Source of the DNA: Daphnia pulex
Lineage: Eukaryota; Arthropoda; Branchiopoda; Diplostraca; Daphniidae
DNA: 64,000 bases
Direction of reading: 5' to 3'
Assembly (NCBI RefSeq): GCF_021134715.1
Contig: NC_060022.1
Location: 5,523,001 to 5,587,000 of the forward strand
This document shows, piece by piece, positions 1 to 35,900 of the stretch (the stretch's first letter is position 1; each line of letters opens with the position of its first letter). The notes under the pieces are model-generated. The model saw nothing but the letters and a program-made list of their open reading frames with translations. It was not told the origin of the DNA and ran no database searches. A program made the translations under genes and the position numbers.

Positions 1-252
1 CTTGTGTGTGTTGTGTCGTGCGTTTCACTCCCTTCCCCCGTTCACTTTGGCGTCGCATTCTTTGTTATTTACTGCTTCACCGGGAATTTTTAGTCATTCT
101 CTGCAGTTGCAACAGGCGAGGCAAGTCGTGCGCCAATCTGTGGTAAACTTTTCAGTTGATCTAAGATTTACAGTTTCTATTGCTGTTATCGTTCACTGAC
201 ATTTCAGCTTTGGTTTACAGGGTGTTGTTGGCATTTCTGAAGACGATCAAAG
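1..252 (+). promoter_or_regulatory. 5' flank and probable spliced leader region of the chitinase gene
   Basis: No ORF of this stretch resembles a protein. A pyrimidine-rich acceptor ending in AG at about 220-221, just upstream of the chitinase ATG at 253, suggests a 5'UTR intron, so the first non-coding exon probably lies in the first ~120 bases or outside the window. The promoter itself is not identified. Confidence 0.4.
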
Positions 253-2595
253 ATGATTAAATCCTTATTTCTGTGTGTTACTCTTGCGTTCGCCTACGCC
301 ACCGGTTTAGACCTTGATGCAAGTAAGTCAAGCCCATGTCTGTAACATTTTTTTCGGCTCCCCCATTTTAATAGTGGTCAAGGTGAATCAAAACATGTTC
401 CCTCAGGCAACACCTAGTGCCTTAAATGGCCATAAGGTCCTGTTAGTCAAACCTTCCCTCTCTCTTTCCTTATCTATCTCTTTCAAAAATCTGTCCTTGT
501 GCGAAAAAATGGGCTAACTAAATGCTGTACTATTTGACCTTTTTTAGATGTCAACTCCCACAACAAAGTTGTTGTTTGCTATGTAGCAGGATGGTCTGCA
601 TACCGGCCAAACAATGGTGCTTTTACTGTTGAAAATATTGACCCAATGCTTTGCACACACATCATCTACGCATTTGCTGGCCTGGATAATGCCACACATT
701 CAATTCAAACTCTAGACCCTTTCCTTGATACAGAAGATGGAGGTGGCAGAGGTAATGTGCACAACTTTCAAACATGACCTTAATTCTGCAAAACATTATA
801 ATAAAAAATATATTTTTTTTTTTTGCTTCTAAATACAGCCCAATACAAAAAAGTCATGGGCTTCAAGCAAAAACAGCCAAAACTTAAAGTTACTATTGCC
901 ATTGGTGGATGGAACGAAGGATCTGGGAAATATTCCAACATGGCCGAGACCCCTGCTAATCGCAAAGCTTTCATCGACAGCGTTTTGACTTTTATCAAGT
1001 AAGAATAATTTTTTCTTAAAAAGTCTGAATTATTATAACGACTTAATTTTGCTCTCTAGAAAACACGGCTTCGATGGCTTGGATATGGATTGGGAGTATC
1101 CCGGCAGCCGTGTTGGCTCTCGCCCAATCGATCGAGAGAATTTCGCACTCCTACTTAAGGTATAAATTATTTAAGAAGAAAAAGTAGATTTATTTTATTA
1201 ATAGAGCGCTTATTCTAATTAGGAAATGAGAGCTGAATTCGATAAAACTGGACTTATTTTGACAGCCGCAATCGGTGCTGCTCCTCAGACTATCAATCGG
1301 TATTATAAAAAAATATAATTTAAAAATCTACAAGGCTAATGTTTTATCAATTGTTAAGTGCTTACGATGTTCCAGCGATTAATCAACATCTGCATTTCAT
1401 TCACATCATGGCGTACGATTACCATGGATCATGGGATTTCCGTAATTCAAATTCCCTTGCTTATTTGGAACGAGTAAATTTATATTGTTTTGTGGTGGGG
1501 CATTTTACATTACAGAAATCGGACACAACGCCCCACTCAGGTTGCCAGTCAACAGCAGTATGATCGAACCCGAACTTCGTCTCAGTGTTGTAAGTATTGC
1601 TAGTTCTTAATGTTTTTTCCGTGCAAGGATTTTGTTTTTTTGGGCTTTTTCTTTTTCTTGTTAGTTTTCTTCTAAATTTGTTTTTCAACTTTCGCATTGC
1701 ACGGAAGCTATCAATTAATGTCTTAAGCTTTCTCGTGCGGGAAAGTTGCGCCCAACTAGTTGCACGCCAACATGCATAACGTGACAATGTACAAGGTGTC
1801 AATTTCACCACACTTATTAAAATGCAGGACGATACAATAACCTACCTGCTGAAACTTGGAGCATCACCGGCTAAACTGGTAGTCGGAGTTCCTTTTTACG
1901 GAAGAACATTCACCCTTGTTGATAAAAATTTGCGTCAAATCGGTTCTGCGTCGAATGGAACTGGATTTCCAGGACCGTACACTCGTGAGGATGGATTCCT
2001 TGGATATAATGAGGTATATCAGTTTGTGTCGTTAGTTTTTAAAGGTCTACATGTAATTAATTGAAACAAAACGACAGATTTGCAAAGAGCTAACCGCCAA
2101 AAACCAAGAGGGTGACAAATGGGTTGAACAATGGGACGAAATTGCTCAAGTCCCTTATATGTACAATGGTGAACGGTGGGTTTCTTACGACAATCAGCAA
2201 AGCGTTGCCATCAAAGTACGCTAATAATTTAATACAACATTCAAATAAAGAAATTCAAGCTAATGATATGTAACCTTGTTTAGGCTCGTTACGCATTTAA
2301 TCAAGGACTTGCCGGGCTTATGATTTGGGCCATAGACAACGATGACTTCATGGCCGAATGTTCCAACGTTCGATACCCATTATTGAGAGCCATCAATTCC
2401 GAATTTAAGGCAGCTTCCAGGGACGGTGCCGTAACTGACAAGACTCCCGTTACTCAAAAACCGAAGGATGATCAGGACCAACAAGGTGACAAAAAGGAAC
2501 CAACATCTGGCAATTCCGGTATCAAGGGATTTTCCATTAATATTCTCGTGTGTGTTTTAACACCTGTGATTTTCACGTTTTCTTTTTTACATTGA
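253..2595 (+). CDS. GH18 chitinase or chitinase-like protein, secreted, with hydrophobic C-terminal tail
   Basis: Family 18 glycoside hydrolase acting on chitin outside the cell. Ten exons join in frame: 253-322, 548-751, 839-998, 1060-1159, 1223-1299, 1359-1441, 1516-1589, 1828-2013, 2078-2215, 2284-2595, giving about 467 residues. Residues 1-17 form a signal peptide. The GH18 signature [11 protein letters not shown] is encoded near 1072-1104, with the catalytic acid Glu present, so activity is expected. [10 protein letters not shown] and the [22 protein letters not shown]-type C-terminal strand are also family features. There is no CBM14 chitin-binding domain. After a Lys/Asp/Gln-rich linker the protein ends in about 20 hydrophobic residues, which looks like a GPI-attachment signal or a membrane anchor (inference). 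It might serve in cuticle turnover or in the gut; the sequence alone does not decide. All signature residues are intact and no frameshift is seen. Confidence 0.9.
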
Positions 2596-2780
2596 GTAAA
2601 TGTTGAATGGGATGTATAATTCCTTCTAAAAAAATTTATCGTATGACATCTTTTAATACAATCTTTTAATGATAATAACAAAAAAAGTTTTAAAATTCAC
2701 AAAAACAAGTAGATTGTAAACATTCATACAGAAATCAATGTATGACAAATGAAATTCATTTTCTTTAAATTCAGTAGTCT

Positions 2781-3409
2781 TTACTCCCCTGATCTAAGGG
2801 ATCTTTTCCTTCTCTCTTCCATCTTCTGCTGTTTCAGTACTGCATTTATGTCTTCAGCATCAGCATCCCAACCAGTTGAAGTTGGGTCTTCATCTTCATC
2901 TACGATCTCACCAAGTCCAGGAGGTGACAATAACAGGCTGTCAAAATTTTCTTGAATATCAAAAGTTACTTTTTGCTGTTGCTGCTGATTAGGTAAAGGA
3001 CGGAAATTAAGCTTCAGGCTATTTGATGTTTTTATTTCAGGTGTCATGTCCTTCAAGAAAGAAAGAAAAAAATAATAAATGTTTTATACTAATGCCAACT
3101 ATATACACTTACATTGAAGAAGTCAGGTTCGTGAGCTATTTCTTCACTGGCTGAGCGTAGCTTAGTAAGTGATTTCCTGTACTGCTCTATATGATCTTCA
3201 ACTGTTGCTGGTTTTTCTTCCCAAGTATTCCAAGGTATCATTTTGTCTCGATTTTTATCAGTGCTACTTTCTGTTACAACACATTCCATTATGACGTCTC
3301 CACTGGGTTTACGTCTACGCTTGTTAAAAATGCACATGACACGTTTGAAAACGTTGAGGATGATCAAAATCAAACCTTTGATACGATTCACAAAATATGA
3401 AATTGGCAT
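2781..3409 (-). CDS. EBAG9: EBAG9/RCAS1 homologue (receptor-binding cancer antigen, Golgi membrane protein)
   Basis: Two exons on the minus strand, 3409-3113 and 3050-2781, join in frame to about 188 residues (human about 213). An N-terminal hydrophobic segment at about residues 5-28 is the Golgi/secretory membrane anchor, followed by a basic KRRRKPSGD stretch. The family hallmark, an acidic-aromatic PDFF next to DMTP, is split by the intron. A Trp-Asp rich acidic part and a charged C-terminal coiled coil (EDINAVLKQQKMEERRKR) close the protein. In vertebrates the family affects Golgi trafficking, vesicle exocytosis and O-glycan processing; no enzymatic activity is known. It is divergent from ADA, with start codons about 430 bases apart. 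The family assignment rests on remembered similarity of the anchor, DMTP and coiled-coil order. Confidence 0.82.
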
Positions 3410-7274: not shown

Positions 7275-9339
7275 ATGGGCAGAGAATTAAGCGGATGGCT
7301 ATTTATGGCGTCATTTATTATTGGATTTTTTTCCTGCGGTGCATCAGCGTCCGAGAAGGACAAGTTAATGACATGGATTCACGAGAACAGTGATATGTTC
7401 GTGATGTTGAAACACTGGAACGATTTGCCTCTCATTTCGACAGCTTGGAAAAGATTGAAAATGACTCCCCAAGTACAGGAGGATCGAAAAAACTTCGTGA
7501 AAAGTGTCGAAACTTTCTTAGAAATATTAGGAGATGATTTGCAAATCAAGCGACCCAATGTTAGTTCAAATTATGACAATCAGACTTTGGTCAATGGAAC
7601 TTTTGAAGTTGCTCCGTTACCCCAAATCCCATCGGGCATTGATTTCAAAGATAACACGGGGGCGTTGGTGAATGCCACTCTAGTACTGGAATCATCGAAA
7701 AAAGAAGTTGAACCAACCACCAACAGCAGTGCAAGCCAATTTTCGAAAGACGATAAAACCTTAATTGTCCAGACCCAGACTTCTTCAAATCCATGCAGTT
7801 GTAATAGTAATAACCAGAGTGTGATTATCATAAATTGTTTATAGTATAAATAATTAATCGATTGGATTTTCTTTTATGTTTCTAAACAGATTCTCTTCAG
7901 TTTGACTCGAAATCTTTTCTACGCGATTATGAGGAGGAAAAACGCTGGATGCGTAGTCAACTTATTCCTTTAAATTACCTTTTTGATAAACTTCGGGTAA
8001 TCGAAGACAGATTCACAAATTTGCAGGTAAATTTTACTTTAACTATAGTATCGTTGGTTCCATTATAAATATAGCTTATTCTTAAGTCATGGGTGTAGAG
8101 TTCTATGAGCTCTATGGTCATGCATACGTTAAATATCAAATTTACATACTGTATATTACATAATTTTTCTTCGCTTGTTGCGCTTTTTGATGAATATTAT
8201 TATCGCCAGCGAACTGCTTGGACGTGCCTGAATGCCAACGAGGCAAGGAATGAGACAACAAACAACGTGACCTCTAACACAAATGTAGCAACAAGTAATT
8301 TAGGTCTTCAAGAATTCCTTTCGCGGATTGAAAACCTTGAATCTCTGAGCAAGGTAGAGAAATTGATTTGTCTTTTTCTTATCGTAAAATAACATGCTCG
8401 ATTAGCCTTAAGTATTGAGCATATGTAATTTTCACTTAATCACTATACGTCTAGACATTTTCTGTTGAGCATCAAAACCTTACCGCTATGGTCATGTCAG
8501 TGCAAGAGACCGCTAAGGCAACAACGGAACATTTAGAAATTCTTTCCAGTCGCGGTAGGCTATCTATTTTTTTCCGGCGCACAATTAATTTTACATTTCT
8601 ATATATCTTTGTTTCGATTTAGTGTCGGATCTTGCTGTTTCCAAGTCTGCATTGTATGAACGCAATAATACGGAAGACGTAGGTATACAAAATCTACGAA
8701 ACCTTTTATTAATTTTTATGATACGGTATTATTCGTACTGAAATGATTATTATTATAATTGTTTTTACAACAAATTCAGAATACTGTCCAGAACATTTAG
8801 ACGAACGGGTTCCTTGTGCCGAAGTAGGCAATTCTTGTTATTGCTTTTCCAAATTGCAGGTAAGACAATTTTTATTTGTCTTTACCTTGAAATTTACATT
8901 TTGTTTTCTTAGAGAAATTGGACAGCCGCACAAGAATTTTGTCGAAAGAACGATATGTTTCTGTTGAGTCTTGAAACGCAAAATGAAACTGAACTTATTA
9001 ATAACCACATTAAAAATTCAGGTAAAAAAATCAACCTTTTTCGATATCTTTATAATATGACAATCGAAAATTGCTAATTGCACATACTGTAACAACTATT
9101 GATTTAACGTTTTAATAGGGTTACCAAAAGATTTCTATTGGACGTCAGGTAGTGACGAAGCTAATGAAGGCCAATGGATTTGGACTTCGACGCAAGAAAA
9201 TATAACGGTAACAAACTGGCGAAACAATCAACCCGATGGTGGAAAAAAAGAGAACTGTCTCTATCTTCACAGCAGAGATGAATTTAAATGGGGGGACTGG
9301 ATGTGCAATTTATCTCAGTATTTCATATGTGAATGGTAA
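7275..9339 (+). CDS. Secreted C-type lectin with long N-terminal stalk
   Basis: Extracellular carbohydrate-binding protein. The ATG at 7275 follows an acceptor by one base. Residues 1-25 form a signal peptide ending CGASA. The first exon (to about 7818) encodes a long Asn/Ser/Thr-rich region with several N-glycosylation sequons. Short exons at about 7892-8024, 8211-8353, 8456-8554, 8624-8679, 8780-8859, 8912-9021 and 9119-9339 complete it. The middle exons have heptad-like spacing and probably form a trimerising stalk. The lectin domain starts at about YCPEHLDERVPC and NSCYCFS, continues with RNWTAAQEFCRKN, and ends with NWRNNQPDGG, ENCLYL and WGDWMCN before FICEW. QPD instead of EPN predicts galactose-type specificity (known for the fold); WGD replaces the usual WND, which may weaken the calcium site. 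The stop TAA overlaps a GTAAGT donor-like string. The first donor is the least certain boundary. Confidence 0.82.
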
Positions 9340-9716
9340 GTCTGCGCAGTAATATTGGAATATATAAAACATTTATTAAATTAATTGCACGGAGTTTTCG
9401 TTAAAATGTGAACTAGGCTACTTTGCTGAAGAACTGTCCGTTTTTTAACATTCTGTTCACTTATGTACTATCATTGTTTAATTAATCAGAAAAATATTAG
9501 AATTTTCAATTTTATTTTATTTTAGAGCCCATTCCCATCCAACCCTCTTCTAAAAACTAAACCATCCCTGAAAATTTAAAAATAACGAATAATGCAGTTC
9601 TCTCCCTGTTTTGATTGAAATTTGCCAAAGGTAGTCTATAGTAATGCCGGCTATAATAGCCACCTGGCAAAAACCGTCCAACATCGAGAATTTTCCTGAA
9701 CAGAAATCAATTCAAT

Positions 9717-10040
9717 GGAGTTCTACTGTCGGGCATGAAAATAGTTTTGAAATCGTTGGAGTTCTATTGTCGGGCATTTAAAATATTTAAAGAAAAAAAT
9801 AATTGAAGAATTTACTGGAGTTATATTGTCGCGTAGTGGAGTTCTACTGTCAGGTACCGGAGTTCTATTGTCGGGAATTTTATAATATTTCAAAAAAAGA
9901 ATTCTTATGTCTTTGGATTTCTAGTTTTCTACTGTCGCTGGAGTTCTACTGTCGCATCCAAAGAAATTTTTAAAAATTAATTAAAATATTGGGGTTCTAT
10001 TGTCGGTGGAGTTCTTCTGTTTTTGGAGTTCTACTGTCAG
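9717..10040 (+). repeat. Cluster of ten ~16-bp motifs (consensus GGAGTTCTACTGTCGG), left arm
   Basis: Copies begin at about 9717, 9758, 9817, 9838, 9859, 9923, 9940, 9991, 10008 and 10025, all in one orientation, separated by variable AT-rich spacers of 0-45 bases. Differences are mostly C/T at the tenth base of the motif and changes in the last bases. They lie about 230-560 bases inside the outer end of the inverted repeat, the position of transposase-binding subterminal repeats in several DNA transposon families. Confidence 0.85.
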
Positions 10041-11715
10041 CAACCCCAATATAGGATAGCGCAACGTTAGTCTACAGCACCTAGCGGCCTGACGTAAGTT
10101 CAGCATATAGTCATAAAGAGAGGTTCAGTGGTAAAATTAGATTAAGATTAAAGATTCAGGTATAAGATAGCGATAATGGTTAAGGCTCTATCGCTTACTT
10201 CCGGTATACTTCCGGAAAATTAGCATGAAACTAGCAAGTGAGCTTTGTTCTCTGTCCAGTTCTAAGGATAGAATGCTAGGTTTTAGCAAACAAAAATGGG
10301 CTTTTCAAGTTTTGTGAGTGTCTTAAGACCAGAGTTCTGCAAATACTGAGTTTTGAGACGTGTCAAATAGATGGCGTTTTGATTGTGTCAGTTATGGGCC
10401 TATGGGCTTATGGCGATTTGCTGTCAACAGTTAAGCTATCTTTTCTTCGAAAATTACCAATGAATTCTTAGTTAAATTCGAGTGATTACGTATGTAAATT
10501 GTCGTTGGTGTGTTCTTATTCCGTGTGTATGTTCAATAACCTCAATGTTTTTTCTCATCAACTTACAGAAGGAAACGTGAAAGGGTCGTGCAGCCTACCG
10601 TCAACTATTTTGTTCAAAATCATTAATTGTATTTTACTGAATGTGCCATGAAAATGATACAGGTAACAACCAACACTAGATTTATTTTGTTGAAACATAA
10701 TTCTTCTCATCTTTTATTAGGATTCATCATTATCGGCTGTTTGTATTGGACTTGCTAGATAACCAATCCAGCATTAACTAATCTCTCATTCCTACTTCTT
10801 TTGGGAACCTTGGATAGCTGATCGATGGTTTCATGTGTAAGTTCGGTTGTAATGTCAATGAACTTTCTTTGTTGTAGTCTATAATGTATTTAAAATATTG
10901 ATCTCCACTTACGTCCATTTAATGTTTAAGAGACAATTTCAAGTTTAGCCTATACTGTAAACTGTTGTATAATTGTTCTTTTAAATTATAGACATCAAGC
11001 ACATTGATGACACACAAATGATAAACAAGGTGACTTATTGTTTATTTTTTTTTACAGGTTCGTCTAATTACACATTTCTAAATTGGCATGGCAGACTTTA
11101 TGAGAAGTCCCGTCCTTTCAAAAAAAAAAAGGACAATGACTATACAGACAGCAAGGTTCCTTGTTTGCTAACCATTGGCTGCTACCCTTGAATCTCCCTT
11201 TTTACTTCCTTACAAGGGCCCTCTTCATTTGAGGTACTGCTTTCTGTTGCTACAACCTTGTTTGAATATTATTGTCATCCAAATAAATGTTCATTCCGCT
11301 TTTACAGGGTAACTCTTTCGCTACTGATCACATCCACTGTTGTAAACTGACGAGAGAATGCTGCAATTCAAGACTGATACATTGTGTAGTGGTTAGATCA
11401 ATGACAAGTGCATATCTGGGCTCCCTTCTTTTCTGTGGCCCCGTTTCCCTAACTAACCACTAACCAACGCCCGCCGGTGGTCACTCACCCGCTGTGAAAC
11501 CAGGAGGAGGGGAGGGCTCTGGTCGAACGGGGACTTGGAAGGCGCATGATCCGATGAAAACTTTTGGAGGGTCATGATGAGTCTAACCCGGAAGCCTAGT
11601 ATGACTACATCTCCCCGGAAAAACTTGCCTCGTACTTCTCTCTTCTTCTCGGTCCAGATACTATCTCTGGGGGCCGTAGACAAAACCTACAACAGCATGT
11701 GCGAGTTAAAACAAT

Positions 11716-12110
11716 GCATCCACTACCCAATGAAACAAAAAGCCATGGTTTATTTTTTGTGGAAATCTGCATCAGTCAAGTTACAAATTTTTCTAATTCA
11801 ACAACTCGCGTAGAATTTTGCATCTAGTCTATTAGTGCAAATCGCGATTCCATGTGTTTGGTAGTTAAGAAAATGGTTTTTTAAAAAACAAACAATGGGG
11901 TGTTCTGAGTAGCCCAAAAACTCACCATTGTTTGTTTTTTAAACAACCATCTTCTTATCTACCACTACCAAACACAAAGGATCGCTATTTGCACCAGTAG
12001 ACTAGATGCAAAATTCGACAGAAGTTGTTGAGTTTGAAAAATTTGTAACTTGACTGACGCAGATTTCCGCAAAACTAAACATCGCTTTTTGTCTCATTGC
12101 CGCAGCGGTG
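11716..12110. repeat. Inner foldback: ~190-base imperfect inverted repeat within the loop
   Basis: Sequence from about 11716 to 11898 pairs with about 11928-12110. For example TTTTGCATCTAGTCTA (near 11816) matches TAGACTAGATGCAAAA (near 11998), and GTCAAGTTACAAATTTTTC matches GAAAAATTTGTAACTTGAC. The short centre includes TTTTTTAAAAAACAAACAATG paired with CATTGTTTGTTTTTTAAA. Roughly 85% of positions pair by eye. It is asymmetrically placed, next to the left arm of the large repeat, and may be a separate foldback MITE or the footprint of a nested insertion. Confidence 0.8.
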
Positions 12111-13426
12111 GTGGCGGGTTGCGTTTAAACTCGTGCAGAAGAAAAATGTTTTGAACCGGACGCTCTGTTTATTGAATTTTTTGTACGTTAAAAAAAAAAT
12201 AATTTTTTTTTAAATTTTGATGTATTAAATTTTTTATTTATTACAGACATAGGGTTTATCATTGGTTTATGTGGTTTAGGTTATAAATTTTAGGGTTGGT
12301 AGGTGTATGATTGTGAGGTCTGAAGAATTGGAAGGTATAAGTTTGTGGGGTTTGGAGATTAATTGGTAGGGATATGTTTGTAGGGTTATTAATTAACTGT
12401 TTTTTATCCAAACTTGAAATATTCCCCCATCAACATCCTCCACTTTCCTCTCCCAATCCCGAACACATGTTTATATTATTTGTTTGACATAAACATCCCC
12501 ATATTTCTTTTTGTTGCTTCCCGACTTATAAACGGTAAACTGCATAGTCACGATGACAATTTAACAAAATAATGATGTAACTACGGTAACATGACACCAG
12601 CACCAAGGAACGGCCAGTTTAATTTGATGCAGAAAGATCTATCACCAGCATAGGCTGCAACATCGTACCACAGCGGACAGCAACTACTCGAACATACACG
12701 ATAAACCTGTAACCGAAATTAAATGAATTAAATGCTGTCTGAAAAGACAAATTAATGACACTTTATTTGGTTTTAGTTAAACCAAATATTCTGAAAACAA
12801 TATCTGATAGCTATTGTTGAAACAAAAACAAAATGTGTGATTTAAACTACAACAAAGAAGAAAGAGAAGCTAAGACTTTAACTGATGTTAATCCTGCTTT
12901 AAAAAAATCAATTACTATCATAAGCAGTAAATTCTCATGCGATAATAACAAAAATGACACAATAATAGCTAAACTATGAAACCACTCAGTGTCAGTTATA
13001 GCAATCTTTTTGAATCAGCCAGACAATTAGAAAGTTGATTGAAATAATTACTTTAGTTGTTCATGTTTCTTCATTTGACGAAACAAACAGCAGTACAGGT
13101 AACAAGAGGAACGCCTTTACAAGCTAGCTGCATCAAATCCATGTGTTGGGTAGCAACGACGAAGCTCAGACTTTACAAGACTGTTTATAAAAAAAAAAAA
13201 AAACAATTACTATCAAGGGCACAGCGTCTCAAATGACAAAAACAAAAATGACAAAAGTTAAAGTTAACTACACAATCCTTTGGAATAAATGTTGCAAAGG
13301 ATCCTACAGCTAGCAAGCTTTTCCAAGGTAGATGCTATGACTCTACAACAGGCAAGTTAAGACATAGTCGCCAAATAACTAACTAAGTCTCAAAGTTAGA
13401 AAGTTGAACATATTTACCTGATGGTT
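12111..13426. other. Loop of the large inverted repeat, non-coding
   Basis: No plausible ORF. From about 12260 to 12410 one strand is G/T-rich (repeated GGTTTAGG, GTAGGG and TTGTGGGG words). The remainder is AT-rich with homopolymer A runs near 13190. Nothing here resembles a transposase, integrase or RNA gene. Confidence 0.6.
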
Positions 13427-15110
13427 TGAACTCGCACATGCAATTGTAGGTTTTGTCTACGGCCCCCAGAGATAGTATCTGGACCGAGTAGAAGAGAGAA
13501 GTACGAGGCCAGTTTTACTGGGGAGATGTAGTCATACTAGGCTTCCGGGTTAGACTCATCATGACCCTCCAAAAGTTTTCATCGGATCATGCGCCTTCCA
13601 AGTCCCCGTTCGACCAGAGCCCTCCCCTCCTCCTGGTTTCACAGCGGGTGAGTGACCACCGGCGAGCGTTGGTTAGTGGTCAATTAGGGAAACGGGGCCA
13701 CAGAAATGAAGGGAGCCCAGATATGCACTTGTAATTTAGCTAACTACACAATTTATAAGTCTTGAGTTACAGCATTCTATTGTTGATTTTCACCAGTGGA
13801 TAAAGTCCATGACAAGTATCAAAGGATTGCTAGTAGGATTACCCTGTAAGCAGAATGAACATTTTTTGGATGACAATAATTTTCAAACAAAATTGCAGCA
13901 ATAACAGAAAGCTATACCTCAAATGAAGAGGGCCCTTGTAAGGAAGTAAAAAGGGAGATTCAAGGGTAGCAGCCAATGGTTAGCAAACAAGGAACCTTGC
14001 TGTCTGTATAGTCATTGTCCTTTTTTTTTTTGAAAGGACGTGACTTCTCATAAAGTCTGCCATGCCAATTTAGAAATGTGTAATTAGACGAACCTGTAAA
14101 AAAAAATAAACAATAAGTCACCTTGTTTATCATTTGTGTGTCATCAATGTGCTTGATGTCTATAATTTAAAAGAACAATTATACAACAGTTTACAGTATA
14201 GGCTAAACTTGAAATTGTCTCTTAAACATTAAATGGACGTAAGTGGAGATCAATATTTTAAATACATTATAGACTACAACAAAGAAAGTTCATTGACATT
14301 ACAACCGAACTTACACATGAAACCATCGATCAGCTATCCAAGGTTCCCAAAAGAAGTAGGAATGAGAGATTAGTTAATGCTGGATTGGTTATCTAGCAAG
14401 TCCAATACAAACAGCCGATAATGATGAATCCTAATAAAAGATGAGAAGAATTATGTTTCAACAAAATAAATCTAGTGTTGGTTGTTACCTGTATCATTTT
14501 CATGGCACATTCAGTAAAATACAATTAATGATTTTGAACAAAATAGTTGACGGTAGGCTGCACGACCCTTTCACGTTTCCTTCTGTAAGTTGATGAGAAA
14601 AAACATTGAGGTTATTGAACATACACACGGAATAAGAACACACCAACGACAATTTACATACGTAATCACTCGAATTTAACTAAGAATTCATTGGTAATTT
14701 TCGAAGAAAAGATAGCTTAACTGTTGACAGCAAATCGCCATAAGCCCATAGGCCCATAACTGACACAATCAAAACGCCATCTATTTGACACGTCTCAAAA
14801 CTCAGTATTTGCAGAACTCTGGTCTTAAGACACTCACAAAACTTGAAAAGCCCATTTTTGTTTGCTAAAACCTAGCATTCTATCCTTAGAACTGGACAGA
14901 GAACAAAGCTCACTTGCTAGTTTCATGCTAATTTTCCGGAAGTATACCGGAAGTAAGCGATAGAGCCTTAACCATTATCGCTATCTTATACCTGAATCTT
15001 TAATCTTAATCTAATTTTACCACTGAACCTCTCTTTATGACTATATGCTGAACTTACGTCAGGCCGCTAGGTGCTGTAGACTAACGTTGCGCTATCCTAT
15101 ATTGGGGTTG

Positions 15111-15435
15111 CTGACAGTAGAACTCCAAAAACAGAAGAACTCCACCGACAATAGAACCCCAATATTTTAATTAATTTTTAAAAATTTCTTTGGATGCGAC
15201 AGTAGAACTCCAGCGACAGTAGAAAACTAGAAATCCAAAGACATAAGAATTCTTTTTTTGAAATATTATAAAATTCCCGACAATAGAACTCCGGTACCTG
15301 ACAGTAGAACTCCACTACGCGACAATATAACTCCAGTAAATTCTTCAATTATTTTTTTCTTTAAATATTTTAAATGCCCGACAATAGAACTCCAACGATT
15401 TCAAAACTATTTTCATGCCCGACAGTAGAACTCCA
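15111..15435 (-). repeat. Mirror cluster of the ~16-bp motifs, right arm
   Basis: Reads as the reverse complement of the left cluster (CAGTAGAACTCC and close variants), with the same number, order, spacers and variant bases. The perfect copying of even the variants shows that the two arms are recent copies or are being homogenised. Confidence 0.85.
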
Positions 15436-15904
15436 TTGAATTGATTTCTGTTCAGGAAAATTCTCGATGTTGGACGGTTTTTGCCAGGTGGCTATTATAG
15501 CCGGCATTACTATAGACTACCTTTGGCAAATTTCAATCAAAACAGGGAGAGAACTGCATTATTCGTTATTTTTAAATTTTCAGGGATGGTTTAGTTTTTA
15601 GAAGAGGGTTGGATGGGAATGGGCTCTCAAATAAAATAAAATTGAAAATGCTAATATTTTTCTGATTTAGTCTGCAACTGCAATTTTGACAGTAACCCTT
15701 CGGGTATTCTGGTAATTAAGTTTTTGTTTGGTCAAAACCTATTTTTAAAAAAATCTGCAGTTAATATTTCATTTTAAATATTTACGCTAAGTTAACGTAA
15801 GCTACTAACAGTGTTAATGCCTTTATTGTTCATGGTAACGGGAAAAGAAAACACTCCTAAAGTAAAAGGAATGAACATCAATAACTTCACCAATCATCAG
15901 AACG

Positions 15905-17616
15905 TCACAATATTTGAATTGGGAAGTCTGGACTTCGAGCAGCTCCGGCAGGTGGACTGAGAAGGCTCAAGGAATTCCATGTTCGACTCATGCAATTATT
16001 GCTGCTATGAGCCTGACCACTGGCTAGAGTGAACCAGAGTGTCTCGTCCATGCGGAACTGTGGTGAATTAGCCATCATGGTATCGGCGACTGAAAGGGCG
16101 GCACTGACTTGTGCGTAGTACGGGTCTTCTTCCAATTCTCCAACGTCCATGTAGATCCGTTGAGGAGCCCTCGATCCTAGGTTCGTCTCTTTGATTGTAT
16201 GGTTCAAAAAATAGAACCCGTTGTCAACGTTGATTTCAGTTGGCCACCAAAACGACGAGCTCTTACACCATCCCTATTGATCCGTGCCAAGAAAAACGTA
16301 ATTACAGTGATATTGTAACTTTTTTATAAGCAGAAAAACATAAAATATATTTGTAATACTGACCATTCCAAATGTATTGGGCCGTGTCCAAATAGCGTGA
16401 CAAGCTAACAGTCCACCCAAAGAGCATCCGCCAATACCCAAGTCATCGCGAAAGATGCGAAGTCGATCATTGGTTAACAGTTGAATGGCAGGTAAAACTT
16501 CGTTTACCATGTAGTTGACGTAGTCATCTCCTAGCCCGCCAATTTCGACTGGATAACCACAGCCATCTCGAAAATACTCCATGTATTCTCTACCGGACAC
16601 GTTCGGCGGAATGCAACCAGCACAATTGTCAGACCAATCACCGTTATAACAGTAATACTGAATGCCTGGCGTAGGTGTTAAAAATGCCACTCGGCCATCA
16701 GATACATTTGGCAAAGAGTAGTCATTGGAACCGATCAAAACTACTTCCTCCGCAACGGCTTTCTCAGCAAAAATTTCATCAAACGAAAAACGATACAGTT
16801 CCATGTAAACCGGACTCAGGTCGGGTACAAGGAACGTCTTGTAAGTCTTGTACGAATTTTCACTGTAACTCGGGGGCAAGTAGTATCCCCAGATTCGATT
16901 GTCGATTACCGCGCTGATTAAAGATTTGACCGAGGTAGCACGTACGGATCCCTGTCTGCTGAAGAAATATGGATATGAGATATGTTCCCGGATCGGGAAG
17001 TTGGCTTCGAGCTTTGAAATGTGAACGGCTGTTCCGTGATTAGGTCCAACCATGTCGGTCCTGTTACTCGTCAGGATCCGATACTCAAGTCGACCGTTGA
17101 CTGGTAGGGTGTTGTTGTGGATGCATTCTGCGCAGGCATATCCGTCGAGAAATCCAGAGAATTTCAAGTCGATCGACCAAGTGTCAATAGACCCTGGTCT
17201 CTCCAATAGTTTTAGATCGTCCCATGCTAATCCCAGTCCATTGCCAATTATGTATAAATCGGTAGACAGCGAGCGATTCTGCAAACAAAAGCGTCGTTAA
17301 TAAATACTGATGGATTTTAAACAATTGGTATGTGAAACTTTGAAGCATGTACTTACTATCAACTCTGATTCGGGATATCGGACGACAATTCTAAGCGTCA
17401 GGTTAGATCGAATATAAGACCTTTCGACCTGACCCTCAACACAGCGATGCCCCGTCGAATAGAAACAAGCGACAATAACTACCGCAATCGCCTTCACAAC
17501 CTAACATACGTCAAATTAGGATGTGTCAGGATTAAGCACAGAATTATTCAGACTATTTAAAAAAAAAATAAGAAAAGATACAGTAGTAAAGGACTGTTTA
17601 CCAGTTTAATTTCCAT
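15905..17616 (-). CDS. Secreted alpha/beta-hydrolase esterase (PF00756-like, esterase D/enterochelin-esterase fold)
   Basis: Four exons, 17616-17602, 17500-17357, 17278-16364 and 16273-15905, join in phase 0 throughout to 480 residues. Exon 1 plus the start of exon 2 encode a signal peptide (MEIKLVVKAIAVVIVACFYS). The N-terminal about 160 residues look like a beta-sandwich domain (WSIDLKFSG, NGRLEYRIL), as precedes the catalytic domain in enterochelin-esterase-like proteins. The catalytic domain has VLIGSNDY, GDDYVNYMVNEVLPAI and the nucleophile elbow GGCSLGGLL (Ser). YMDVGELEEDP and SGQAHSSNNCMSRTW carry candidate Asp/Glu and His of the triad. Several N-X-S/T sequons and many Cys fit secretion. 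The substrate is unknown. The transcript ends beside the large inverted repeat and has a TATA box upstream. Confidence 0.8.
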
Positions 17617-32900: not shown

Positions 32901-35900
32901 AAACTTACCGTCTTTGCACTTGAAAGTAGACAACGTATGCGTGTCTCGCTCACACTCGTGCCTATACCTTGGTCTTACCATTGACGACAAGCTCAGTTGG
33001 AACATCCATATAGCAAACAAATGCTCTGCGGTAAAAAAACTCTTATTCCTCATTCTAAAATGTTGTCGGCTGTCTTGGGGACTCTCGCGCAATGCAATCT
33101 CTCTTCTGTACAAAACAACGGTGATTCCAACCATACTTTACAACTGTTCTGTTTGGGCTTCGGCCATCCGCAGGAAACGTGTGGTTGCAGCCCTGAAATC
33201 CGCCCAACGCCCCTTTGCGTTATCAATTGGCCGACTGTTCAAGTCCACGTCCACTGACGCGGCTCTCATCCTCGCCAACATCTTCCCTCTGCACCTCAAA
33301 ATAATCGAAACGGTTCTAAAGAGATCCTTTTCTGCCCTTGCTGCTCTTCTTCCTCCCTCGTCATTACAAGTTGCCGGCGAAACTTCGGCCAAAATTCTGG
33401 CGTCTGAAACTCCAGCAGGCATACCTGTTGGTCTGCACAGAAAAAGAGTGTTGCGCTCAGAAATGCTTTCCTTTTGGAACTCAGCCTGGCAAAACGCTAG
33501 TACGGGTGCCCAGACCCGCTTGTTTTTTCCCTCAGTGGAATCAGCCTTGATTTTGTCTTCTTCGGAATTACCGTTCTTTCTCTGCAGCTTTCTCTCGGGC
33601 CACTGCGGCCTAAACAATTTTCTCTTTAAAATCAAAAAGTCTCCGTCACCGCTCTGTCCCTGCCTGTCAGGGGAAGTGGAAGATGTGGCTCATATTTTGT
33701 TTGTCTGTACCAGCCACGCCGTACACAGAGTCAGCCTTATTAATTCTGCGGCTGAGTTAAAGCTGTCGTGGCCAGTCCCATTAGACGCTTTCGCCCAATC
33801 AAAAACTCTTTGGTCTGCGCTTGTTAAATTCCTATGTTCTATCAAAAGACTTTAACCTCCACCACCTTTTCCCTGTTCTTTATATTTTATTTCTTCTCTT
33901 AGTTGCGTTTTGGTACTCTGTACATTTTTGCATGGGTCCCTCGTGCCCTAATTTCGGGCGCTTTTAACCCTGCTTTCATCCTCAGGCTCTAGCGGGCGCC
34001 TTAACCGGACCGTGGCCGTAAGAGTCGTCCGTTGCTTCGCGGTGCTGGTGACATCCAAATCAGCATCTCGTCGCTCCGGACTATCTGGGGGGTTGGCAGC
34101 GGCGTCTTTTTATTCTTTTTAGTCTTCTTATTCTTTTTACTCGTGCTCTTAGTTGCATTTTGGCCGCTCTTTTGTTTCGCATGAGTCCCTCGTGCCCTAA
34201 TTTCTGGCGCTTTTAACCCTGCTTTCATCCTCAGGCTCTAGCGGGCGCCTTAACCGGACCGTGGCCGTAAGAGTCGTCCGTTGCTTCGCGGTGCTGGTGA
34301 CATCCATATCAGCATCTCGTCGCTCCGGACTATCTGGGGGGTCGGCAGCGGCGTCTTTTTATTCTTTTTAGTCTTCTTATTCTTTTTTACTCAGTTTTTC
34401 AATCGCGTGCCTCTCCGCTTCACTTTCCAGAATTCCAGTTCTACTTTCGATCTTCTGCCTAATCTTTCTTCTCGGTTCCCTCTCTCTTCTCCCATCCTCC
34501 TCTCTTATCCTTATTTTATCTCTATTTCATAATAATGTGACTCTTGTATTTTACCATGCCTATGACAATAAATTGGTAACATTCGCCTTCGGCGAATACA
34601 CACCTCATTTAAAATACGAACGACGTCTTAATCAAATTGGTCTCTTTTTCTTTGACGTCTTACATGCAGATAAGTTACATAGTCCTTTTGGCTGTTTGAT
34701 ACAAGAGTCAACCGTGGGCATACTATTACCAGTTTCCCTGACCGGACTTGGGTAGTACGGGGATCGAATGTTACGTGCCCGTCAGAACATCAGCAGGTAA
34801 ACGTATATGCGCATTCACTTAAAAAACTAAAGCAACAGTTTGACTGTGAAACCATACACTTTTAAACATTGCAATATACGTAGTACAGTATATACACTAG
34901 TGTACATACACCGGTGTATTACGTGCTCACAATGATATCAAATTACGCAAATGACTCCAGCCTGCAGAAATGTAAGTATATTATTACAAATTCATTACCC
35001 TGGCTATTATAATAATACGCTTGCACCAATTGAATTGGACAATTGCACTCGGAATCTGAGGAATTTTCCTCCCGGAATAGGCCTAGATTTTGAAAATACT
35101 ACTCAGTTGCGACCTTTTTAAAAAAAATTTGACTACATCTTACTTTGTTTAAAACGTAAAAGATTACATTCAGGAAATGAATATTGAGTGCATGCATGGG
35201 TATTTTTAGATGGAATTGAGGAGTCCATGAAAAATGATGCGTCTGTGACTAGACAGCAGCAAGCTACTAGAGAAATGGTGCCAAGAAGGGCCGAAGGGCC
35301 CATCCAAGTTTAGAATTGCTCGATCTTTGTGGCGCATCCTCTTCTAGTGAGCGCGGTTATATAGCAAAAAAAAAATGGTTCGGTTGAGAGGGAAAGTTCT
35401 ACAGTGGAAACTGATCTATCCCGATTGAATTACATCCACACGTATTTCCAGCAACACACTCGCTAGCGCAATAACAGTATACAGTCTAGCCATAGTGGAC
35501 TTTAAAAATAGCATCCAAATGGCTTTCTCGAACCGGTACTACAGGACATTGAAGAAATCCCAACTCTTTTAAAAGTCCGTATACAGTACAGAGTGTGAAA
35601 AACTGCTTTGACATTGATAGTTGTCTGTTATGAGAGTAATCGGCCCATAGTAATGGTTAATCAAAGCCCTCGAGTCCTTTCCAAGGTAATTAAAAGTGCA
35701 CTAGGAACTTGTAAACTCAGCAGATACGGTAACGTTGATTCACAAGTTTCATTGACAAGGAAAAAGCAAAAAAAATAGCAGGCAAATGAAACAAAAGGAA
35801 AAACAATAACAGAAAGAGGGACGGACTCTGTTTGATATTAGTCTTCCACTTACTCCTCACATGGAAACGCTAGCAACGCGGTTACAAGGTATATATTGTA

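What the first reader, a model, noticed from the sequence alone, without database searches (positions are those of the whole stretch)
9484..15667. A 6.2 kb near-perfect inverted repeat between two convergent genes: possible hairpin-RNA locus
Two arms of about 2.2 kb are virtually identical in inverse orientation, with a 1.7 kb loop and no protein-coding capacity. The lectin (+) and the esterase (-) both transcribe into it, so read-through from either side would make a long foldback RNA, a natural Dicer substrate (established for hpRNA loci in flies). Either an endogenous siRNA source, an unusual foldback transposon, or both.
Basis: partly seen in the sequence, partly recalled or inferred. Interest (0 to 1): 0.78.

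Follow-up and report, generated by a model that had tools for sequence, protein, structure and literature searches.

The report
Dispersed noncoding DNA palindrome family
This mirror-image stretch of water-flea DNA is not a lone oddity: it belongs to a family of large noncoding palindromes scattered through the genome and concentrated on one 7-million-base piece of it, whose two halves look as if they are kept nearly identical by copying each other.

Summary
The inverted repeat is real. The outer 1,765 bp of the arms differ at 5 sites; over 2,253 aligned columns they are 97.1% identical. The "1.7 kb loop" is left-arm and spacer sequence whose right-arm partner is missing. The genome (133 Mb; a Daphnia close to D. 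pulex) holds 169 sites of a conserved arm 36-mer. Of 25 listed neighbour pairs under 15 kb, 24 face inward. Contig C6, 5.4% of the assembly, holds 37 of 60 sites of a hairpin-loop 28-mer. Centres are homologous between several loci, while both arms match their own partner best at 8 of 10 palindromes. So the palindromes share ancestry and were most likely homogenised by arm-to-arm gene conversion. At one locus the palindrome includes flanking DNA with the start of an open frame. No target-site duplication, common terminus or transposase was found in what I read. A conserved 372-nt hairpin in many arms is a better Dicer substrate on paper than the whole repeat, but its stem shows no sign of pairing selection, and no RNA data were available. 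A 21-bp motif (ETS-like, recalled) in most sampled loci has 534 genome sites and hints at wider palindrome families. Observation confirmed; hairpin-RNA reading untested.

The parts
9484..9708 (+). Outermost left arm; in the hits listed it occurs only here and in the right arm
   Evidence: every listed hit other than the two arms starts at query 310 (window 9709) or later; 40 of 260 candidates were scored
9709..10170 (+). Left arm, dispersed repeat with TGGAGTTCTACTGTCG motif; many genomic copies
   Evidence: 5 of 19 places on C1-C5 lie within 5 kb of an exact 21-bp motif, random mean 0.29 with some contig lengths guessed
10175..13422 (+). Left core unit of the family (arm plus part of the spacer), reading outer to inner
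10197..10217 (+). 21-bp motif ACTTCCGGTATACTTCCGGAA, left arm
11403..11715 (+). Near-invariant block, left arm (284 of 310 scored columns invariant among 11 loci)
11728..12099 (+). Nested 372-nt hairpin, left arm only at this locus; folds at -204 kcal/mol, z -28.75
11716..13420 (.). The 1.7 kb 'loop': left-arm and spacer sequence with no counterpart in the right arm
   Evidence: (left core 1-3248, right core 1-1541) compared with loci A and B
13421..14976 (-). Right core unit, truncated (core positions 1541 to 1)
13421..13744 (-). Near-invariant block, right arm
14934..14954 (-). 21-bp motif, right arm
14977..15667 (-). Outer right arm, copy of 9484-10174
9121..9339 (+). Last coding exon of the C-type lectin gene (exon start read by eye); poly(A)-like ATTAAA at 9375
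15905..17296 (-). Esterase-like gene, two ORF pieces; poly(A)-like AATAAA on - strand at 15822

Best explanation
This is one member of a dispersed, chromosome-biased family of large noncoding palindromes in a Daphnia genome. SHOWN: two inward-facing copies of a unit of about 3 kb flank an asymmetric spacer; spacers are homologous between several loci, so those palindromes share ancestry and were not each made afresh; arms within most sampled loci are more alike than arms of different loci; at several loci identity changes in abrupt steps; at this locus the inner right arm and part of the spacer are missing. INFERRED: the arms are kept alike by arm-to-arm gene conversion or break-induced copying inside the palindrome, and such copying can overrun the end of the unit into neighbouring DNA, so each palindrome ends at its own place and flank is carried to the other side (clearest at locus H on C10, where the start of a 262-aa open frame was copied). 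How units reached new sites is unknown; an old transposition or segmental duplication fits. If transcribed, inward-facing promoters would give convergent, double-stranded RNA; this last step is speculative.
For: Copies: 36-mer 88 + / 81 - at up to 3 mismatches, reversed control 0. Inward pairing: 24 of 25 neighbours under 15 kb among the 100 places listed of 169, none outward; hairpin-loop 28-mer 15 of 16 neighbours in the full list of 60. C6 enrichment: 37 of 60 against 3.3 expected; 44 of the 100 listed 36-mer places. Shared centres: A-B 95.7% over 807 bp, F-G 91.8% over 1,064 bp, B-G 85.9% over 1,962 bp; D and H match each other (86.4% over 486 bp). Both arms match their own partner best in 8 of 10 loci; own-arm identity over the core 91.5-100% against 83-98% between left arms of different loci. 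Identity steps in W, F, G, H. Flank copying at H: the 640 bp of outer arm that I searched occur on both arms (89%) and otherwise only as two shorter related stretches 4-5 kb away (479 bp at 72%, 51 bp at 92%); the open frame is whole only on the left. Precedent: human Y palindrome P8 expanded by inverted duplication of flanking sequence, by NAHR or BIR (PMC6790999, passages read).
Against: Loci C and I break the rule: their arms match other loci better than each other. Locus J showed no inverted arm. The sampled loci were picked mostly from paired hits. Many copies look single in the listing (75 clusters for 100 places), although partners with more mismatches were not listed. The centres of D and H match each other but not those of the other loci, so one ancestor for all is not shown. 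No second haplotype or related species was available, so conversion is inferred from one assembly. For W itself the overrun is less certain than for H: 9709-10170 is a dispersed repeat that also sits near related motifs elsewhere, so only 9484-9708 looks locus-specific.
Confidence: 0.75

Rival explanations
1. Hairpin-RNA locus: read-through or an own promoter makes a foldback or double-stranded RNA that Dicer cuts into siRNAs. Either the whole palindrome or, more likely, the conserved 372-nt hairpin in the arm is the source. Not exclusive with the best explanation.
For: The 372-nt hairpin folds at -204 kcal/mol, z -28.75. Hairpin region and block are the most conserved parts of the unit (84% and 92% invariant columns against 54-60% in the flanking core). 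Arm pairs face inward, and most sampled loci carry the 21-bp motif near the outer end.
Against: Stem changes look unconstrained: 17 pair-keeping one-sided variant types, 36 breaking, 13.5 keeping expected from transitions alone; 1 of 144 pairs compensatory. Neighbouring genes have poly(A)-like signals before the arms. The hairpin is shortened in both arms of G and one arm of I, and not detected in H. No target gene was found, but hits were unannotated and only the best 40 candidates per search are scored. No RNA data.
Confidence: 0.3
2. Non-autonomous foldback-like DNA transposon with very long terminal inverted repeats, moved by a transposase encoded elsewhere.
For: Dispersed copies with a shared unit and, at several loci, a shared centre; subfamilies with different outer extensions beyond a common limit about 400 bp outside core position 1. 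Overrun copying would erase target-site duplications, so their absence is weak evidence.
Against: No target-site duplication or common terminal motif at the outer ends of 9 loci aligned and read by eye; no transposase domain in the 16 ORFs scanned; no P-element or MULE domain match on C6 (0 of 5 and 0 of 55 matches), though only about 3 of 55 would be expected there by size.
Confidence: 0.35
3. Single recent inverted duplication at this locus only.
For: The outermost 225 bp look locus-specific and the outer arms are nearly identical.
Against: The core is repeated genome-wide, pairs face inward, and centres of several other loci are homologous.
Confidence: 0.03
4. Assembly artefact (missed adapter or foldback reads).
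For: Very high arm identity; no reads were available to me.
Against: Arms differ at 5 sites plus a diverged inner part; centres are asymmetric and shared between several loci; arms at other loci range down to 91.5%.
Confidence: 0.03

Closest known systems
Human and ape sex-chromosome palindromes with arm-to-arm gene conversion (P8 and others)
   Same: Inverted arms kept nearly identical; palindromes can grow by inverted duplication of flanking sequence (PMC6790999, passages read).
   Different: P8 arms are 37-38 kb and carry genes; here arms are about 2-7 kb, without recognised genes in what I scanned, and belong to one repeat family at many sites.
Palindromes reported in parthenogenetic animals (Adineta vaga, Folsomia candida)
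   Same: Palindromes in asexual invertebrates, conversion proposed.
   Different: Those were found by gene collinearity; D. pulex was left out of that survey for lack of annotation (PMC7953838, passages read).
Drosophila hairpin-RNA (hpRNA) loci
   Same: Long inverted repeats that could make double-stranded RNA.
   Different: hpRNAs are recognised by Dcr-2-dependent 21-22 nt siRNAs, and examples have homology to target genes (PMC10317233, passages read); neither is shown here.
Foldback-like transposons such as Galileo
   Same: Dispersed elements with long inverted repeats and variable structure.
   Different: Most Galileo copies of D. willistoni have 7-bp target-site duplications, and Galileo is placed by its P-type transposase (PMC4168063, passages read); neither was found here.

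Membership tests
Palindromes with arm-to-arm gene conversion | Two inverted arms on one chromosome around a spacer | tested here: met
   the window locus and 9 of 10 other loci; those loci were chosen mostly from paired hits, so this is no random sample
Palindromes with arm-to-arm gene conversion | Arms of one palindrome more alike than arms of different palindromes | tested here: met
   8 of 10 loci; exceptions C and I
Palindromes with arm-to-arm gene conversion | Conversion seen between individuals or species | not testable with these tools
   one assembly, no relatives held
hpRNA locus | Long inverted repeat able to form a duplex | tested here: met
hpRNA locus | Dicer-dependent 21-22 nt siRNAs from the duplex | not testable with these tools
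   no small-RNA data
hpRNA locus | Homology of arms to a target gene | tested here: inconclusive
   hits are unannotated and only the best 40 candidates of each search are scored
Foldback or long-TIR DNA transposon | Common termini flanked by target-site duplications | tested here: not met
   outer ends of 9 loci aligned and read by eye; could be masked by overrun copying
Foldback or long-TIR DNA transposon | Transposase in at least one copy | tested here: inconclusive
   16 ORFs without a transposase domain; most copies were not read

The most novel reading that the evidence does not exclude
The palindromes may be functional chromosome-scale elements: chromosome-biased families of inward- or outward-paired units that share a 21-bp motif (534 sites at up to 2 mismatches; found in 8 of the 11 loci I read) and, in the C6-rich family, a near-invariant 0.75-kb module that usually includes a long hairpin. 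They would be held uniform within each site by conversion and used to mark or regulate one chromosome (for instance pairing, insulation or a dsRNA-based control).
Probability: 0.12. Interest if true: 0.85.

Novelty: new variant of a known kind. Interest (0 to 1): 0.6.

Why it matters
Large palindromes whose arms look homogenised are best known from sex chromosomes and a few asexual animals. A dispersed noncoding family of them, with many loci to compare in one small genome, would let conversion tracts, overrun into flanks and palindrome growth be measured directly in an animal that can be bred with or without sex. The near-invariant module and long hairpin, inside a unit that otherwise differs by about 2-17% between loci, also call for a functional test.

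Tried and rejected
Single inverted duplication: rejected, the core is a family. Structured RNA in the conserved block: no, it folds no better than shuffles on either strand (z +1.04 and +1.36), and Rfam at gathering scores finds nothing in the window and six loci; weak miRNA-family hits to the hairpin lie far below the gathering scores and reflect its self-complementarity. Protein in the block: a reading frame of 95-106 aa is open in 27 of 33 aligned rows (two rows are second fetches of the same copy; two further hits under 250 bp were dropped) and shorter in both window copies (77 and 80 aa). Related pieces occur in 8 database proteins at E up to 10, two of them labelled Daphnia pulex, the others unnamed, with differing flanks, and there is no Pfam hit. 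I count this as an open frame in a conserved DNA block, not as a proven protein. Transposon ends: none seen. tRNA-derived origin: no tRNA found in 9000-16000. Viral origin: no exact match of the 36-mer or the 21-mer in viral contigs. Regular spacing on C6: not shown, coefficient of variation 0.93 over the loci listed. Pairing selection on the hairpin: not supported. I first took the whole outer 690 bp of this locus as captured flank; one search made that doubtful for 9709-10170.
Full report
OBSERVATION. The inverted repeat at 9484-15667 is real. The outer 1,765 bp of the two arms differ at 5 positions; further in, identity drops abruptly (28 mismatches and 29 gap columns in one 250-bp bin). 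The region has no ORF of 90 aa or more. It lies between a C-type lectin gene and an esterase-like gene that converge on it, each with a poly(A)-like hexamer 109-155 bp before the repeat.

ORGANISM. The genome holds 133.2 Mb in 13 contigs. A frame in the arm matches proteins labelled Daphnia pulex at 95% and 75% identity, and the only named cladoceran hit of a neighbouring gene is Sida crystallina at 40%, below unnamed hits of up to 98%. I therefore take it as a Daphnia, close to D. pulex; the strain is not established.

A FAMILY, NOT A SINGLE LOCUS. From 10175 inward the arm recurs throughout the genome. A conserved 36-mer has 169 sites at up to 3 mismatches (88 + and 81 -), with 0 in the reversed control. 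Only 100 of these places are listed; 44 of them lie on C6, which is 5.4% of the assembly. Among the 100, 24 of 25 neighbours closer than 15 kb point inward (+ then -), one is same-strand and none outward; the 100 places form 75 clusters, so many look single there. A hairpin-loop 28-mer has 60 sites, all listed: 37 on C6 against 3.3 expected, and 15 of 16 neighbours point inward.

ANATOMY. I read the window locus (W) and ten others (A to J, 20 kb each), picked mostly from paired hits. W and nine of ten others (A-I) are palindromes; J is single-armed. The main arm alignments run from 2.3 kb (W) to 7.3 kb (A); in I the arms match in three pieces of 0.7-1.3 kb. A near-invariant block (W 11403-11715) is present in both arms of W and A-I and in J. 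A 372-bp hairpin (W 11728-12099) is whole in both arms of A-F, in J, in one arm of I and in the left arm of W, shortened in G and in the other arm of I, and not detected in H. The 21-bp motif lies near the outer end in 8 of 11 loci (both arms of W, A, B, C, E, G; one arm of D and I; none in F, H, J).

ARMS ARE ALIKE WITHIN A LOCUS. Own-arm identity over the core is 91.5-100%, while left arms of different loci are 83-98% identical. In 8 of 10 palindromes both arms match their own partner best; in C and I they match other loci better. Spacers are homologous between several loci; those of D and H match each other but not the rest. So palindromes that share a centre share ancestry, and their within-locus likeness must have arisen later. 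Identity along the arms changes in steps in W, F, G and H; A and B are almost uniform, D and E nearly so, and C is evenly diverged. This fits arm-to-arm gene conversion; it is inference from one assembly.

OVERRUN INTO FLANKS. The palindromes end at different places and in different sequence, without target-site duplications or a common terminus at nine loci aligned and read by eye. At H (C10) I searched 640 bp of the outer arm: they occur on the two arms (89% identical) and otherwise only as two shorter related stretches 4-5 kb away (479 bp at 72% and 51 bp at 92%); all 4 candidates of that search were scored. A 262-aa open frame is whole on the left, and only its first part lies within the arm and so recurs on the right; that it is a host gene is inferred. 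At W the outermost 225 bp appear nowhere else in the hits listed, but 9709-10170 is a dispersed repeat. Of its 19 places on contigs C1-C5, 5 lie within 5 kb of an exact 21-bp motif (5,000 random placements: mean 0.29, largest 3, with the lengths of C1, C2, C4 and C5 guessed), so that part may be a family module rather than host flank. Beyond core position 1 the sampled subfamilies share about 300-450 bp and then differ. Expansion of a palindrome by inverted duplication of flanking DNA is known from human Y palindrome P8 (PMC6790999, passages read).

CONSERVED MODULE. Among 11 loci (left arms, columns with at least 9 letters), 284 of 310 columns of the block and 361 of 431 of the hairpin region are invariant, against 565 of 1,043 and 470 of 778 in the flanking core. 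The block is not a stable RNA fold on either strand. The hairpin folds at -204 kcal/mol (z -28.75), but among 18 copies from 16 loci only 1 of 144 pairs shows a kept double change, and one-sided variant types keep the pair in 17 cases and break it in 36, close to the 13.5 keeping expected without constraint. So the sequence is conserved but pairing is not shown to be selected.

A WIDER MOTIF. ACTTCCGGTATACTTCCGGAA, present once in each arm of W, has 534 sites at up to 2 mismatches and 0 in the reversed control. Only 100 places, all exact and on C1 to the start of C6, were listed. On C2, 8 pairs under 15 kb point outward (- then +), six of them 2.99-3.19 kb apart. That the motif resembles tandem ETS factor sites is recalled, not tested.

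WHAT IT IS. Best reading: a dispersed, chromosome-biased family of noncoding palindromes, most likely homogenised by arm-to-arm copying that can overrun into flanks. Origin by an old foldback-like transposon is possible. No P-element or MULE transposase domain matches on C6 (0 of 5; 0 of 55, about 3 expected by size), and there is no transposase domain in 16 ORFs scanned, but most copies were not read. Double-stranded RNA production is open.

LITERATURE. Searches for Daphnia with palindromes, inverted repeats, hairpin RNA, foldback elements, the KAP4 assembly and chromosome-specific repeats listed no paper whose title or abstract start describes this family; some listings were cut (15 of 20, 12 of 503, 8 of 280). 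I read passages of PMC2884549 (D. pulex DNA transposons; 'foldback' 0 occurrences), PMC7953838 (palindrome survey that left D. pulex out), PMC6790999, PMC10317233 and PMC4168063. Absence from these searches is not proof that it is unpublished.

Noticed in passing
33926-34392: GC-rich 249-bp unit repeated 1.9 times at 97% match (letters), away from the palindrome; identity not worked out.
   Followed up: no
9709-10170 and its genomic copies: The dispersed repeat in the outer arm is often found as adjacent inverted pairs elsewhere (for example C12:2417882 - and 2418151 +; C1:5238635 - and 5238741 +), and it also matches a stretch just outside the arm end at locus D.
   Followed up: partly
G000 C2, 0.27-13.0 Mb: Eight outward-facing pairs of the 21-bp motif, six spaced 2.99-3.19 kb, suggest a different palindrome family on C2.
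   Followed up: partly
G000 C6: No MULE (0 of 55, about 3 expected by size) or P-element (0 of 5) transposase domain match falls on this 7.26 Mb contig, although it is richest in the palindromes.
   Followed up: no
L013 5020-5454 and the centre of L023/L024: Two palindrome centres on C6 hold a similar 144-aa open frame; the L013 copy has no Pfam match.
   Followed up: no
L025 4724-4955 and L026 6076-6315 (locus E, C8): A second, 80% identical copy of the near-invariant block lies further out in both arms of locus E.
   Followed up: no
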